Shown here one piece after another: positions 21,472 through 39,215 of a stretch of 64,000 nt of DNA. Positions within the stretch are counted from its first letter, which is position 1, and each line of letters opens with the position of its first letter. A program made the translations under genes and the position numbers. Source of the DNA: Brachionus manjavacas (Eukaryota; Rotifera; Eurotatoria; Ploima; Brachionidae); assembly GCA_019054805.1 (NCBI GenBank), contig JAHQIY010000011.1, forward strand, positions 377,001 through 441,000. Reading direction: 5' to 3'. The notes under the pieces are model-generated. The model did no database searches, was not told the DNA's origin, and worked only from the letters and a program-made list of their open reading frames with translations.

Positions 21472-22782
21472 ATGAATGAAAAATGGCCCACGCTAATTGT
21501 TTATTATAATAGCTTAATTGCTGGGCACTTGACAAAAACAAAACACCAGAATTCAGACGAATACGCATTTACATACACTCAAGAATATGTTAAGTCCGAC
21601 CAAACTGTACCTTTGGGTGTCAATCTGCCTAAAAGATTCGAAGCTTATTCATGTAAAGATAAGCTGCCGCCATTTTTTGATAATTTAGTGTCCGAAGGCT
21701 GGTTAAAAGAAAATCAGTCAAAAGCATTGAATCTACAAGATTTCAAAGAAGGAGATAAATTCCATATTCTATCATATTTTGGATTTGACTTGATTGGCTC
21801 CGTTTCAATTAATCAAGATCTTAACGACAGTAAATTATTTCTCCCTCATTTTAATTATAATATAAGCTCATTATCAGACTCTCAGAGTTCCAATTCGTCT
21901 CAAGAGTCAAGTGTTTCTATTGACAGTAATTCAACTATTTCTGGGGTGCAAAAAAAAGTGCTGGTTAAGAAAATAAACGATGAGTTTTGGTTGACAACTG
22001 TTGATCAATTAAGCACGCATATTGGAAAACTAGATTCTGAAATATTTCCAGGTTTGATCGAGCTAGAGTATTTAAGTACCCGAGTAATGAAAATTCTACT
22101 CCCAAATGATCAAATTCATAATGTTCAAATAGGTTTTATTAAAGAATTGATGGAAAATGCATTGATTGTAGAAAGATTTGATAGATACCATTCAAATGAT
22201 TTAGTTAAACGGAAGCACTTTGAAGAATTCAATCAATTGTTGGATAAGCATTCAGAAGATAAATACAATTTCTCGTATGATGAAATGGGATTTTTTATGC
22301 GCAATTGTACACTTTGTTGGCATGAAGATTTGTTGAAGCTTTTTAAAAGAATACTTGCATGTATTATCATCGGAAACACTGACGCTCATTTGAAAAATTT
22401 CGCCATGTTCCACAATCATGATGGATCCTTATCGCTCACGCCAATGTATGATATTGTTGCTTCTTCTTTTTACCAACAGCTAAACACACTAGCGTTGACT
22501 ATAAATGGAAAAAAAGATGCCATAATCAATGACTTGAAGCCAAAACAGATTGTCGAATTCGCACTAAACCCCAAAGGCTTCGGATTAGACGCAGAATTAT
22601 TGATAGAGGTTATTGACGAATTCAATATTTATAAACAAAAAGCAATTGTGTTTCTCCAAAGCGAGAATACAAATGTGAATGTTCAAAAAAAACTAGTAGA
22701 AATGATACAGAAAAGATGGAATGGTTCTTTTGAGGGAGTCAAATCAAATTTAGTCAAGAGGAAAAAATTGAAAAACCTTTAA
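21472..22782 (+). CDS. HipA-family Ser/Thr kinase, intact, intronless (bacterial type)
   Basis: HipA kinases are the toxin partners of bacterial hipBA modules; the E. coli enzyme phosphorylates glutamyl-tRNA synthetase. This 436-residue ORF has an N-terminal HipA-N1-like part (about 5-115, with LPPFFDNLVSEGWL). A Ser-rich linker (132-156) and the ATP-site motif SGVQKK (157-162) follow, then VERFDR (233-238). The catalytic loop GNTDAHLKNF (301-310) has Asp304 and Asn309, and LTPMYDIVAS carries the metal-binding Asp327. All key kinase residues are present. No antitoxin gene (HTH type) lies beside it. The surrounding genes have introns and eukaryotic features, so this looks like horizontally acquired DNA kept intact, though contamination in assembly must be excluded. 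The Ser-rich linker and AT-rich codon use suggest long residence. Cellular role is unknown. Confidence 0.92.
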   Translation: MNEKWPTLIVYYNSLIAGHLTKTKHQNSDEYAFTYTQEYVKSDQTVPLGVNLPKRFEAYSCKDKLPPFFDNLVSEGWLKENQSKALNLQDFKEGDKFHILSYFGFDLIGSVSINQDLNDSKLFLPHFNYNISSLSDSQSSNSSQESSVSIDSNSTISGVQKKVLVKKINDEFWLTTVDQLSTHIGKLDSEIFPGLIELEYLSTRVMKILLPNDQIHNVQIGFIKELMENALIVERFDRYHSNDLVKRKHFEEFNQLLDKHSEDKYNFSYDEMGFFMRNCTLCWHEDLLKLFKRILACIIIGNTDAHLKNFAMFHNHDGSLSLTPMYDIVASSFYQQLNTLALTINGKKDAIINDLKPKQIVEFALNPKGFGLDAELLIEVIDEFNIYKQKAIVFLQSENTNVNVQKKLVEMIQKRWNGSFEGVKSNLVKRKKLKNL

Positions 22783-31038: not shown

Positions 31039-32067
31039 TCAATCAAATATTTTAAACTTTTGAAATATTCGACCAACAAATGTTTTGTTAAAATTTCCAA
31101 TACCAATATTTGATTTTCCAGCTCCGAGCATTTGAATTGTGTAACAATTATTAAGGGCATAGTTTAAATCTTTATTATTTTCACTCACAAGTTTTCTTGT
31201 CTTACGTAAATGATAAAAACAAATTAACTCTCGTTGTGGTATGAAGTTAATTTTATCAAAGCTATTTTCAATCAATTCCATCATCATTATTGCTCCAGCT
31301 GGTGCATAGCCTTGATGCCTAATCCACCATATATCATAATATTCAACACAGTCCTTCAAAAAAGGGTGATGTTTATCAAAGTGATAAACACTGTTCGATA
31401 TGCACGTAAAGTTTTTAGCCTTTGGTGCATTGAACACTTTGTTGGAGCACTTGTAACTAAAGTTGTCTGCAACACCAATACTGTTCTTTAGATTTTCTAG
31501 ATTTTTTATCACAAAACTATCTGTGTCGATGTAAAAGCCTCCATATTTGTAAACTAGAAAGTATCGCATAAAGTCAGACAGATGAACCCGGGTCAATTGA
31601 AGGCCTTGGTATTTTTTTCCATTTAGAATTTCATTTGCTTTGAAAATAAACTGATTGCCTGGTTCATTTTGGCCAAGTTTTGTCAAGTTAAATCGCACAA
31701 TGTGAACATTTGTGTAATTTTTTTTTCTAAAAGGATCTAGCAAAGAGTCTTTGAGTTCATTTGAAAATAAGAGAATGTCTGCTTTTGGATGATGATAGAC
31801 CACTGTTTGAAGACATTTGAGATATAAATCCGGAAATGTGTTACCAATCCATATGAGAAAAATGTTAAAGCGGTCTGCTTTTGGAATATACGATATTCCT
31901 TGCTCTTCTAAAAGATTCTCTGAGCCATCCAACAACGATTTATCTATCAAATTATTTTGTACTAGCAGAGATATTTTATTCAGTGATAAGAATCCATTTA
32001 TTGAAAGATAAACAAATGACAAAAGACAACAAATAATCAGCAATAAAACAACTTTAAAATAATTCAT
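31039..32067 (-). CDS. Golgi-type glycosyltransferase, Gly_transf_sug/A4GALT-like
   Basis: The 342-residue intact ORF is a type II membrane protein: a short N-tail, an anchor at about 5-27 (VVLLLIICCLLSFVYLSING), a stem, and a catalytic domain. The motif HLSDFMRYFLVYKYGGFYID followed by T-D gives the DTD metal/nucleotide-sugar site at 181-183, as in Gb3 synthase and alpha-1,4-GlcNAc transferases. WIGNTFPDLYLKCLQTVV and LLFSNE are the family's early strands. The product should transfer a sugar to glycolipid or glycoprotein in the Golgi; donor and acceptor are unknown. The first 50-60 codons and the upstream flank are duplicated at 35640-36003. Confidence 0.88.
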   Translation of the reverse strand: MNYFKVVLLLIICCLLSFVYLSINGFLSLNKISLLVQNNLIDKSLLDGSENLLEEQGISYIPKADRFNIFLIWIGNTFPDLYLKCLQTVVYHHPKADILLFSNELKDSLLDPFRKKNYTNVHIVRFNLTKLGQNEPGNQFIFKANEILNGKKYQGLQLTRVHLSDFMRYFLVYKYGGFYIDTDSFVIKNLENLKNSIGVADNFSYKCSNKVFNAPKAKNFTCISNSVYHFDKHHPFLKDCVEYYDIWWIRHQGYAPAGAIMMMELIENSFDKINFIPQRELICFYHLRKTRKLVSENNKDLNYALNNCYTIQMLGAGKSNIGIGNFNKTFVGRIFQKFKIFD

Positions 32068-36423: not shown

Positions 36424-38061
36424 ATGAAAATGGATTTATACAAATTTATTTTTTATTTCTTAATATTTGTTTCACTTTTATTATTAATATTTTTTCCGAA
36501 TAAACTAATACCAAAAATGGAAAACATTAACTTTCAAAATTCTAATTTACCAACTGTAATTCTAGTAATAGGCACCCGACCAGAGGTGGTCAAGTGTTCG
36601 CCTCTCATTTCAATGCTCAAAAACGACCATTTTAAATCAAGACTTGACTTGGTTATTTTGAGCACCGGGCAGCATCGAGAGATACTCAAAGAAACATTGA
36701 AGTCATTTAATCAATCAATTGATATCGATTTGAATTTGATGACTGCTAACCAGGATTTGAGTCGATTTTTTCAATTAGCTTTCACAAAAACCACAGACCA
36801 GTTTAAAAAAATCAAAAATATCAAGCTAGTTGTTGTACAGGGCGACACTACGACGGCTTTGGCAGCCAGTCTAGCTGCTGCCTATCTTCATATACCAGTG
36901 GCTCATGTCGAAGCAGGTCTAAGATCATATGACATGGAAAATCCATTTCCAGAAGAAGAAAATCGCCACATTATAGACTCAATTTCAACTCTTTTGTTTG
37001 CGCCAACTGCTTTTGCCAAAAAAGCACTGCAAAAAGAGTCCATTTGTGATTCAAATATTTTTGTGACAGGCAACACAGGCATTGATGCTTTTTTTCTATT
37101 TCAATCTAAAAAGAAAGCAGTCGAGTCACCAATTCTAAAAGAGCTAAACAATTTGGAGAAAAAATCAAAATCAAAAAAAATAATCATCCTAGCTACGATG
37201 CATAGGAGAGAAAATTATAAGAATGTAGAGTCTATGTGCTCGGCAATTAGGAACATAGGCACTAGATATTTAAATGATGTTGTGGTCATATTGCCTGTTC
37301 ATCCAAATCCAAATTTTAGGCACAAAATAAAAAAAATTTTGAAGGATTTATCAAACATTTTGTTAGTTGAGCCCATTGCTTATGACACATTTCCTCAAAT
37401 TTTGAATGCTTCAGACATTGTTCTAACTGACTCGGGCGGAATCCAAGAAGAAGCGTCAACTTTGGGAAAACCTATCATTTTGATGCGGGACACCACCGAA
37501 AGACCTGAGGGTATTTATCATGGAACGATACAACTTATTGGATCAGATACATCTAAAATTGAGCTAGCAGTTCAAAAATTAATCGAAAAAATTACAACTT
37601 CTGGTCTGAGTCATTTAAAAAGAGACATTTTTGGTGATGGTAAAGCCTCGGAAAGAATAGCTGGCATAATTGAACAATTTTTGTACAAAAAATTGCCACT
37701 TCAAAATCCACAATGTTCTACCAAAGCAAGACAAAATTTAATTGCAAAAGAAATTTATGAAAAATTTTCAAATTCTTCAAAAAATGAACTGTTCAATGAA
37801 GAATATAAAACTTTGTCAGAAAAAAATTTCAAACAAAATTTTCAACCTTACGAAATAAGAAAGAGTCAACTTAAAAGTGAGAGCATGCCACAGAAGCGTT
37901 TAACAATGGAGCAAATATTTTCATTGCCAAGCGAATATCACATATCCAAAAGAGATGAGGAGCAATTTTCAGTGACAAGTGTAGTCAGTTTGTACAGAAG
38001 AAAAGGCTTGGCAAAAAGATGGATCGATTCGTTGCTGAAGCAAACTCATCCTCCAAAATAA
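36424..38061 (+). CDS. Membrane-anchored UDP-GlcNAc 2-epimerase (non-hydrolysing, WecB/MnaA type), start of a fusion protein
   Basis: This enzyme interconverts UDP-GlcNAc and UDP-ManNAc. Animals normally use the unrelated hydrolysing branch (GNE) instead. The ORF begins with a hydrophobic anchor (7-25) and then a complete epimerase domain (about 44-422). Its motifs are IGTRPEVVK (49-57) and GQHREIL, VQGDTTTAL with Asp141, and HVEAGLRS with Glu163. PEEENR follows, then TMHRREN with His260, PVHPNPN, and TDSGGIQEEA with the nucleotide-binding Glu pair. All catalytic residues of the bacterial family are present. After a linker, a second domain begins (SVTSVVSLYRRKGLAKRWID) and breaks at TAA 38059-38061. 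The ORF at 38019 continues it in the next frame, so one polypeptide of about 930 residues was probably intended. Topology suggests a Golgi or ER type II protein. Confidence 0.92.
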   Translation: MKMDLYKFIFYFLIFVSLLLLIFFPNKLIPKMENINFQNSNLPTVILVIGTRPEVVKCSPLISMLKNDHFKSRLDLVILSTGQHREILKETLKSFNQSIDIDLNLMTANQDLSRFFQLAFTKTTDQFKKIKNIKLVVVQGDTTTALAASLAAAYLHIPVAHVEAGLRSYDMENPFPEEENRHIIDSISTLLFAPTAFAKKALQKESICDSNIFVTGNTGIDAFFLFQSKKKAVESPILKELNNLEKKSKSKKIIILATMHRRENYKNVESMCSAIRNIGTRYLNDVVVILPVHPNPNFRHKIKKILKDLSNILLVEPIAYDTFPQILNASDIVLTDSGGIQEEASTLGKPIILMRDTTERPEGIYHGTIQLIGSDTSKIELAVQKLIEKITTSGLSHLKRDIFGDGKASERIAGIIEQFLYKKLPLQNPQCSTKARQNLIAKEIYEKFSNSSKNELFNEEYKTLSEKNFKQNFQPYEIRKSQLKSESMPQKRLTMEQIFSLPSEYHISKRDEEQFSVTSVVSLYRRKGLAKRWIDSLLKQTHPPK

Positions 38062-39215
38062 TCTGGGTTGTCTATTTTGCTTCGCCAATTTCCAACGAAT
38101 TAGACCAAGAAATAGCCACAATCAGAAAAGAGTTGAATGAGAGTGGTGTCAAAATTCCAATCTATACCAATAGAGGTGACATGCAACTCAAGTATTTTGG
38201 ACGATTCCAACTGGCACTTCAAACAAAGACTAATTTTGTTGTTGTTTTTGACGATGACTCAATACCACAAAGTCGCTTCATAGAAGCATGTTTGCACACA
38301 ATTAACACTCAAAGCTACAGTGGAATTCTGGGCACAAAAGGAACGCCGTTCGAAGAGAACGCATTCTTTGGTCCCATTTCACAATCGAACACAATTGTGG
38401 AAGTGGACGTTGTTGGCGGAAGTTGGTTCATGAGAAACGAGTGGGTCAAATTGATGTTTAGAGATAAAATGTTCTCTTGGGATACTGGAGAAGATTGGCA
38501 TTTGTGTGCGAATGCGAGAAAGTATGCAAATGTTAGATGTTTTGTGATGCCGGTGAACAACTTAGACAAAGCTACAAATGGATTTTCAGATGATTATTTG
38601 CAAGTAAGTCACAGTGGAGACACAAATGGTTTTGTTCAAAACCAAAGAAGATTTATTCGCATGCAGCAAAACACCAGAGGAGATAGACACATGAATTCTT
38701 ACAAAAATGATGAAAAAAATTTACTAGTTTTTACTGAAGATAAAAGAGATGCAATTAATTTAATTTTACTCTTGGACAAGTTGCTTGACAAATCTGTCCA
38801 AATTGTGCTAGCTGTGCACAATAATGACGAGCTCAAGATCAAAGAGAGTGACTTGAAGAGAGTCAAAGTTGTAAAAGATTTCATGATTGCGAGAGACTAC
38901 AACTCGAATGTGACACTTCTTTCACGTTCAGCTGAGAGTTTTTATCATTTTGAAATGATTATTCAACAAACACAAAGCACTGGCCTCATAGTGGTTGGTT
39001 CGTCTGGAAGCGCGGCTACTGTTGGTGCTGCAACAGCTGCTCGTTTACTCCAATTTCCAATAATTAACTTTAGCTTCAAAGACCAAGTCAAAAATATATT
39101 TATTAATCAAATTATCAAGGACTTGTCATCTATTAATTTAGATTTAAGTGATGGATTTTATTTGGAGACAAAGATTATAAAAAATTTCCAAGATTTTCTC
39201 AAAGCTATTTTTTAA
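38019..39215 (+). CDS. GT-A glycosyltransferase plus unassigned C-terminal domain, continuation of the epimerase fusion
   Basis: This frame overlaps the end of the previous one. Meaningful sequence starts at about 38058 with IIWVVYFASPISNELDQE, which follows naturally from DSLLKQTHPP in the other frame; one extra base in the A run CCAAAATAAT would join them. The domain has NRGDMQLKYFGRFQLALQ and FVVVFDDDSIPQSRFIEA, whose DDDS is a typical metal/nucleotide-sugar motif. MFSWDTGEDWHLCANARKYA is also characteristic of family-2-like transferases that use an ED acid pair. From about 38700 a separate alpha/beta part follows (LLVFTEDKRDAINL, then GLIVVGSSGSAATVGAATAA) that I cannot assign. The product of the upstream epimerase, UDP-ManNAc, is the obvious candidate donor; that is inference. 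Confidence 0.8.
   Translation: MDRFVAEANSSSKIIWVVYFASPISNELDQEIATIRKELNESGVKIPIYTNRGDMQLKYFGRFQLALQTKTNFVVVFDDDSIPQSRFIEACLHTINTQSYSGILGTKGTPFEENAFFGPISQSNTIVEVDVVGGSWFMRNEWVKLMFRDKMFSWDTGEDWHLCANARKYANVRCFVMPVNNLDKATNGFSDDYLQVSHSGDTNGFVQNQRRFIRMQQNTRGDRHMNSYKNDEKNLLVFTEDKRDAINLILLLDKLLDKSVQIVLAVHNNDELKIKESDLKRVKVVKDFMIARDYNSNVTLLSRSAESFYHFEMIIQQTQSTGLIVVGSSGSAATVGAATAARLLQFPIINFSFKDQVKNIFINQIIKDLSSINLDLSDGFYLETKIIKNFQDFLKAIF

What the first reader, a model, noticed from the sequence alone, without database searches (positions are those of the whole stretch)
36424..39215. Bacterial-type UDP-GlcNAc 2-epimerase fused to a glycosyltransferase behind a membrane anchor
The epimerase has every catalytic motif, and would yield UDP-ManNAc. 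It is followed by a GT-A transferase with a DDDS motif, and preceded by a signal-anchor. Such an architecture would make and use UDP-ManNAc in one Golgi-type protein, a route not known to me in animals. It suggests an unusual surface glycan.
Basis: partly seen in the sequence, partly recalled or inferred. Interest (0 to 1): 0.87.

Follow-up and report, generated by a model that had tools for sequence, protein, structure and literature searches.

The report
Rotifer enzyme that makes and uses UDP-ManNAc
A small aquatic animal (a rotifer) carries a bacterial-style enzyme that turns a common sugar building block into N-acetylmannosamine, joined in one membrane-anchored protein to a sugar-transferring domain that probably attaches it to surface or secreted molecules, a use of this sugar that we could not find described in animals.

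Summary
The domains are real: N-terminal signal anchor, complete WecB-type (non-hydrolysing) UDP-GlcNAc 2-epimerase, then a GT-A glycosyltransferase with a DDDS motif. Two corrections. First, the window copy is not one open frame: one base missing from an A-run at about 38054 splits it. An intact 929-aa copy lies 135 kb away on the same contig, and the Brachionus plicatilis orthologue is unbroken. Second, a third, C-terminal domain was missed; its model folds like the N-lobe of the same epimerase but lacks the catalytic Asp. The fusion is not contamination and not unique: it occurs in monogonont and bdelloid rotifers and in Naegleria, with catalytic residues kept in 29 of 29 near-complete fusions compared. 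The transferase belongs to a subfamily whose viral (phage-like) and Helicobacter members sit beside a UDP-GlcNAc 2-epimerase gene (17 of 22 viral loci; 8 of 8 Helicobacter-family genomes that have it). This makes UDP-ManNAc its likeliest donor. Against strict coupling, two Brachionus paralogues keep the transferase with a decayed epimerase. Best reading: a secretory-pathway enzyme that converts UDP-GlcNAc to UDP-ManNAc and passes ManNAc to a glycan. Substrate, acceptor and expression are untested.

The parts
36424..38061 (+). ORF 1 (545 aa): signal anchor, UDP-GlcNAc 2-epimerase, linker and the first strand of the GT-A domain; ends at a stop created by the frameshift
36436..36492 (+). Signal-anchor-like hydrophobic stretch (residues 5-23, mean Kyte-Doolittle 2.48 over 19 residues)
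36550..37674 (+). WecB-type epimerase domain; Pfam match starts at 36637. Catalytic Asp of GDTTT at 36844-36846, then HVEAGLR, PEEENR and HRREN
   Evidence: family assignment and residue counts on the paralogue P0121:
38054..38061 (+). Single-base deletion in an A-run (4 A here, 5 A in the paralogue) that brings TAA into frame
38019..39215 (+). ORF 2 (398 aa): rest of the GT-A domain plus the C-terminal domain
37945..38649 (+). GT-A glycosyltransferase domain (spans the frameshift); DDDS 38250-38261, GED with GAA-GAT at 38490-38495
   Evidence: fold from the relative P0140; residue counts
38722..39215 (+). C-terminal domain that in the model of a relative folds like the N-lobe of the epimerase; GDT replaced by GSS (S at 39000-39002)
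36545..39142 (+). Tract 99.3% identical to the inverted paralogue; similarity at DNA level stops inside the coding sequence at both ends (likely gene conversion)

Best explanation
It is a rotifer gene for a type II membrane protein of the secretory pathway. The epimerase domain converts UDP-GlcNAc, imported into the lumen, to UDP-ManNAc. The attached GT-A domain uses the UDP-ManNAc at once to put ManNAc on an unidentified glycan acceptor. The coupled transfer would pull an epimerisation whose equilibrium favours UDP-GlcNAc (recalled), and making the donor inside the lumen would remove the need for a UDP-ManNAc transporter. The C-terminal domain is probably a dead half-epimerase that serves as scaffold, by standing in for the dimer partner or docking the two active domains. 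Shown by sequence or model: domain order, catalytic residues, conservation, linkage of this GT subfamily to the epimerase in viral contigs and bacteria. Inferred: activity, donor, luminal location, acceptor, role of the half-epimerase. The window copy is frameshifted (a real lesion or an assembly error); the paralogue 135 kb away is intact and would do the work.
Against: No transcript, protein, activity or glycan data. The window copy is broken. GT without a working epimerase exists: P0137 has the GT and C-terminal domain alone; B. calyciflorus P0123 keeps the GT behind a decayed half-epimerase (by eye); the C18 copy lost the catalytic middle of its epimerase. Neighbourhood linkage is indirect: the viral loci are related, 5 of 22 lack the epimerase, and in 3 of 8 Helicobacter-family loci the epimerase is split over two frames. 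The Cys insert is absent from Brachionus and Naegleria, and 14 of 29 fusions show no clear anchor. Half-epimerase homology rests mainly on one predicted model; profile comparison is weak (prob 46% at best; 12%; no epimerase hit).
Confidence: 0.6

Rival explanations
1. The transferase uses UDP-GlcNAc (or another UDP-HexNAc) and the epimerase domain only tunes donor supply, senses UDP-GlcNAc or has lost activity.
For: Structural neighbours of the GT are mostly GlcNAc/HexNAc transferases. P0137 has the GT and C-terminal domain without an epimerase; P0123 and the C18 copy keep the GT with a decayed epimerase.
Against: Catalytic epimerase residues are kept in 29 of 29 near-complete fusions; the same GT subfamily sits beside separate epimerase genes in viral contigs and Helicobacter relatives. 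Paralogues with a dead epimerase could use UDP-ManNAc made by the intact one.
Confidence: 0.22
2. The window copy is a pseudogene or carries an assembly error in one homopolymer, and only the inverted paralogue on the same contig is functional.
For: One-base deletion at 38054 against an otherwise 99.3% identical intact copy; B. plicatilis P0001, which matches the window copy at both ends, has no break.
Against: No further lesion: both halves stay open, and of 18 codons that differ from the paralogue inside the tract 12 are synonymous (which lists a 19th just outside the tract). Does not conflict with the main reading.
Confidence: 0.5
3. The protein feeds sialic acid synthesis, like the animal GNE enzyme or bacterial NeuC.
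For: Epimerase_2 superfamily is shared with GNE.
Against: NeuC model far under cut-off; a GT follows instead of a kinase; NeuB and CTP_transf_3 hits lie only on contig C21, which is bacterial in the two stretches read; no GT29 hit, but that search had no positive control.
Confidence: 0.04
4. Bacterial contamination or an endosymbiont sequence.
For: The epimerase is bacterial in type, and the assembly does contain a bacterial contig, C21.
Against: The gene lies on a 3.49-Mb contig among animal-type genes, 1.4 kb from a gene with two spliceable introns of 48 and 50 nt; relatives in Brachionus, Adineta and Rotaria records; the 23 eukaryotic-type epimerase rows form one clade with support 100/100.
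Confidence: 0.01

Closest known systems
Non-hydrolysing UDP-GlcNAc 2-epimerases WecB / MnaA / SacA (e.g. PDB 1f6d, 3beo, 6vlb)
   Same: Family model, fold, catalytic Asp/Glu/Glu/His and HRRE and QH motifs
   Different: Membrane-anchored, fused to a GT and to a probable dead half-lobe, in an animal
GT-A transferases: heparosan synthase GlcNAc-T domain, KfiA, EXTL2
   Same: GT-A fold, DxD, UDP-HexNAc donors
   Different: 11-20% identity; donor here inferred as UDP-ManNAc; own subfamily signature (RF.LAL, DDDxIP, GTxG, E.D.VG..W, ED)
Viral (phage-like) and Helicobacter-family GT-plus-epimerase gene pairs (L013, L016, L022-L043 in part, L054-L060)
   Same: Same GT subfamily near a WecB-type epimerase
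   Different: Separate genes; no C-terminal half-epimerase seen in the GT proteins read
Helicobacter-family GT-B - epimerase fusions (L062-L064)
   Same: Epimerase and glycosyltransferase in one protein
   Different: GT-B-like partner at the N-terminus; no GT-A, no half-epimerase
[quoted passage not shown]
   Same: Epimerase_2 superfamily in animals
   Different: Hydrolysing, kinase partner, cytosolic, makes free ManNAc for sialic acid (recalled)
WecG / TagA / TarA ManNAc transferases (GT26; recalled)
   Same: Would use UDP-ManNAc or its acid
   Different: Different GT family; no such Pfam hit here

Membership tests
Non-hydrolysing UDP-GlcNAc 2-epimerase (WecB) | TIGR00236 over its curated cut-off | tested here: met
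   363.3 bits against 210.15 for the paralogue P0121; 339.4 for Naegleria P0006
Non-hydrolysing UDP-GlcNAc 2-epimerase (WecB) | Catalytic Asp, two Glu and His (D95, E117, E131, H213 of WecB; numbers recalled) | tested here: met
   D138, E160, E174/E175 and H257 of P0121 in 29 of 29 near-complete fusions; same columns as 1f6d. P0123 and the C18 copy, outside that count, have lost them
Non-hydrolysing UDP-GlcNAc 2-epimerase (WecB) | Fold | tested here: met
Non-hydrolysing UDP-GlcNAc 2-epimerase (WecB) | UDP-GlcNAc to UDP-ManNAc activity | not testable with these tools
   needs protein
Hydrolysing NeuC / GNE | TIGR03568 over its cut-off | tested here: not met
   79.2 against 235.9
Hydrolysing NeuC / GNE | GNE: kinase domain after the epimerase | tested here: not met
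   GT-A follows; no kinase Pfam hit
GT-A glycosyltransferase of GT2 type | Pfam GT2 family over cut-off | tested here: inconclusive
   PF13641 28.9 against 27 for P0121 and 29 for P0003, but 26.9 for P0006, 22.8 for the window ORF 2 and lower in others; PF00535 over cut-off only in P0003 and P0010 of the ten
GT-A glycosyltransferase of GT2 type | GT-A fold with DxD | tested here: met
GT26 ManNAc transferase (WecG/TagA) | GT26 Pfam domain | tested here: not met
   none among hits up to E 1
Half-epimerase (C-terminal domain) | Epimerase N-lobe fold | tested here: met
Half-epimerase (C-terminal domain) | Sequence homology to the epimerase N-lobe | tested here: inconclusive
   hhalign prob 46%, P 2e-4 in register, controls at most 1.4%; 12%; no epimerase hit
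Half-epimerase (C-terminal domain) | Catalytic Asp of GDT | tested here: not met
   GSS in its place, S in 29 of 29, so it is a dead lobe if homologous

The most novel reading that the evidence does not exclude
Rotifers and Naegleria build ManNAc directly into luminal glycans with a self-contained UDP-ManNAc synthase-transferase. It makes its donor inside the Golgi, so that no nucleotide-sugar transporter for it is needed, and a dead half-epimerase shapes the assembly. The enzyme pair was taken from a bacterial or phage sugar cluster more than once in the rotifer lineage.
Probability: 0.4. Interest if true: 0.86.

Novelty: new variant of a known kind. Interest (0 to 1): 0.72.

Why it matters
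In animals ManNAc is known as a free precursor of sialic acid, not as a UDP-activated building block (recalled; the listings of the ten searches showed nothing to the contrary). If this enzyme works as read, an animal lineage has a ManNAc-containing glycan, a way to make a nucleotide sugar inside the organelle where it is used, and a case in which donor synthesis and transfer are fused. It also gives a testable donor assignment (UDP-ManNAc) for a GT-A subfamily of phage-like contigs and Helicobacter relatives for which no family model here named a donor.

Tried and rejected
Sialic-acid route: NeuB and CTP_transf_3 hits looked like a rotifer NeuB-NeuA pair until the ORFs around them (two stretches of 9-10 kb) showed contig C21 to be bacterial. 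GT29 search: no hit, but no control rang either, so it shows nothing.

C-terminal domain as an epimerase copy by sequence alone: weak. It is kept on the strength of the fold, where this part was covered as a whole by only two of the 50 rows shown.

Programmed frameshifting at 38054 considered and set aside: by eye, no slippery heptamer at the site, and orthologue and paralogue need no shift.

Viral relatives of the full GT and C-terminal module: a scan with the 33-row alignment found none; an earlier scan found phage-type GTs only, and one scan with L017 found only its own kind. The best viral fold match was a Homavirus GT (16% identity), not followed.

One clade of all rotifer fusions: rejected on GT plus C-terminal domain and on full length (p-AU 0.0059 and 0.0028), but the grouping was named after the tree was seen, unnamed rows were assigned by guess, and the tree of the epimerase C-lobe alone places the rows differently: there the B. 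plicatilis-type rows split off first and B. calyciflorus P0003 stands apart from them. So the history of transfer is left open.

The profile comparison is not independent, as both alignments contain the L004 sequence. The literature searches listed nothing on this protein; (26 papers, 20 listed) two were looked into. PMC5932028 and PMC4794789 were seen as passages only, the rest as listings. Protein searches were capped: one search scored 8000 candidates and listed 120; see only relatives that share short words.

Full report
What is there. The window lies on a 3.49-Mb contig of a 114-Mb assembly. The gene is closest to Brachionus plicatilis (P0001, 91% identity over 94%), so the organism is taken to be a Brachionus rotifer; no tool named it. 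The stretch 36424-39215 holds two overlapping ORFs in different frames. ORF 1 (545 aa) has a hydrophobic N-terminus (Kyte-Doolittle 2.48) and a complete Epimerase_2 domain. ORF 2 (398 aa) holds most of a GT-A domain with DDDS. The split is caused by one base: against a paralogue 135 kb away in opposite orientation, the window lacks an A at 38054. The paralogue is a single 929-aa frame, and P0001 is an unbroken 901-aa protein whose two ends match the window copy rather than the paralogue (by eye). So the fusion is real at family level, but the window copy itself carries a lesion or an assembly error.

The two copies are 99.3% identical over 2,599 alignment columns (18 mismatches, one gap), and DNA similarity stops inside the coding sequence at both ends, while the protein ends remain recognisably related (by eye). 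This points to gene conversion between old paralogues rather than a fresh duplication (inference).

Host, not contamination. Neighbouring ORFs carry PseudoU_synth_1, DcpS_C/HIT with zf-C2HE, and Gly_transf_sug domains. A gene 1.4 kb downstream gives an open frame after removal of two GT-AG introns of 48 and 50 nt. The assembly does contain a contig, C21 (1.22 Mb), that reads as bacterial in the two stretches examined, and the only NeuB and CTP_transf_3 hits lie there. PF02350 hits occur at three places in the whole assembly, all of them epimerase-GT loci. An exon-split GNE could be missed by a six-frame search.

Distribution. A search with the GT and C-terminal module found 33 proteins, 30 of which also carry PF02350. 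Named sources are Brachionus, Adineta, Rotaria and Naegleria gruberi; the rest are unnamed. A profile search gave 27 proteins up to E 10, none named as bacterial; these searches need shared 5-residue words. P0137 is the only clean case without an epimerase; P0136 and P0138 look like partial or mis-joined models. The epimerase parts of 23 eukaryotic-type rows form one clade (100/100) among the bacterial rows sampled (midpoint root). The GT tree and the full-length tree put Brachionus with Naegleria and apart from bdelloids, and one clade of all rotifer fusions is rejected (p-AU 0.0059 and 0.0028). The tree of the epimerase C-lobe alone does not repeat that grouping. Transfer between eukaryotes or sorting of old paralogues would explain the first pattern; I leave it open.

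Donor, from gene neighbourhood. The GT domain has relatives in viral contigs (30-35% identity, tblastn E 4e-27 at best) and in Helicobacter sp. MIT 00-7814 (27%, 4e-14). In 17 of 22 viral loci from one scan (the query's own locus included) a WecB-type epimerase frame follows on the same strand, directly in 16 and 1.3 kb away in one; 5 of 22 have none in the held DNA. These loci are related, so they are not 22 independent cases. In the family of G001 (the Helicobacter genome) the GT occurs in 8 of 121 genomes at E 1e-15. In all 8 an epimerase frame lies on the same strand within 3.2 kb, in three within 140 nt; in three of the 8 the epimerase is split over two frames. The epimerase is present in 50 of 121 at E 1e-40 and in 46 over the curated cut-off; 7 of the 8 GT genomes are among the 46. 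Co-occurrence of all 8 with the 50 has P 6e-4 by chance (related genomes not corrected for). Five of these genomes have epimerase frames of 766-860 aa; the three that I read carry a GT-B-like domain in front of the epimerase (by eye), so fusion of a transferase with this epimerase has happened in bacteria too, with another partner.

A second fusion in the same animal. The C18 locus (L005) joins an epimerase C-lobe to a GT of the viral/Helicobacter type. The middle of its epimerase, with the catalytic Asp and Glu residues, is missing and the frame is broken, so it is a degenerate copy or an inactive protein. In the GT tree it groups with Helicobacter (91/91, long branch, warned of by the program) and not with the main eukaryotic clade, and its C-lobe groups weakly with Helicobacter (82/50). 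The simplest reading is a separate acquisition; long-branch attraction is not excluded.

Location. Of 31 proteins scanned (29 fusions, P0137, P0002) 17 have an N-terminal 19-residue stretch of mean hydropathy 1.8 or more, 15 of the 29 fusions among them. Of the others several start late: P0015 lacks the anchor that its close relative P0135 has upstream of the same sequence. Bdelloid-type fusions carry 6 Cys (17) or 4 Cys (3) in the 90 residues before QLKYF, as expected in an oxidising lumen (inference); Brachionus and Naegleria fusions have none there.

Mechanism proposed. Luminal UDP-GlcNAc is epimerised and the GT-A domain transfers ManNAc. With a GT2-type ED base the reaction would be inverting and the product beta-linked, but structural neighbours include EXTL2, a retaining enzyme (recalled), so this is open. 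The acceptor is unknown.

Novelty. Each domain is of a known kind; the architecture and its place in an animal did not appear in the listings of ten searches. One diatom paper lists UDP-ManNAc in a figure legend of a pathway (PMC5932028, passages), so UDP-ManNAc has been suggested in a eukaryote before. Public records already name P0001 an epimerase.

Noticed in passing
G000:C21 (L010, L011): A 1.22-Mb contig that in two stretches holds densely packed bacterial genes (accC, accB, aroQ, nagZ, neuB, neuA, kdsB-like; names by eye) in the rotifer assembly: probably an associated or endosymbiotic bacterium.
   Followed up: partly
L005:3005-4865 (G000:C18): Second epimerase-GT fusion of viral/Helicobacter GT type, with the catalytic middle of the epimerase missing.
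   Followed up: yes
P0123 (Brachionus calyciflorus): Paralogue with anchor, GT and C-terminal domain whose N-terminal epimerase has decayed to a degenerate N-lobe.
   Followed up: partly
21472-22782 +: Intact single-frame HipA-like protein (HipA_C 128.5 bits, Couple_hipA 64.6 bits), a bacterial kinase family, on the animal contig.
   Followed up: no
31039-32067 -: Gly_transf_sug (DXD) glycosyltransferase, 342 aa, with a signal-anchor-like start (by eye), 4.4 kb upstream of the finding.
   Followed up: no
L062-L064 (Helicobacter-family genomes): Proteins of 760-854 aa that join a GT-B-like domain to a WecB-type epimerase in one frame.
   Followed up: partly
L012:2859-6410: In a record titled Verrucomicrobiaceae MAG: GT of this subfamily with an anchor-like start and a frame gap; looks like a mis-binned eukaryotic sequence.
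   Followed up: no
L016:4122-6739: Viral contig with a GT-A gene (behind a GT-B-like part) and a UDP-GlcNAc 2-epimerase gene in a row; phages seem to carry a UDP-ManNAc transfer module.
   Followed up: partly
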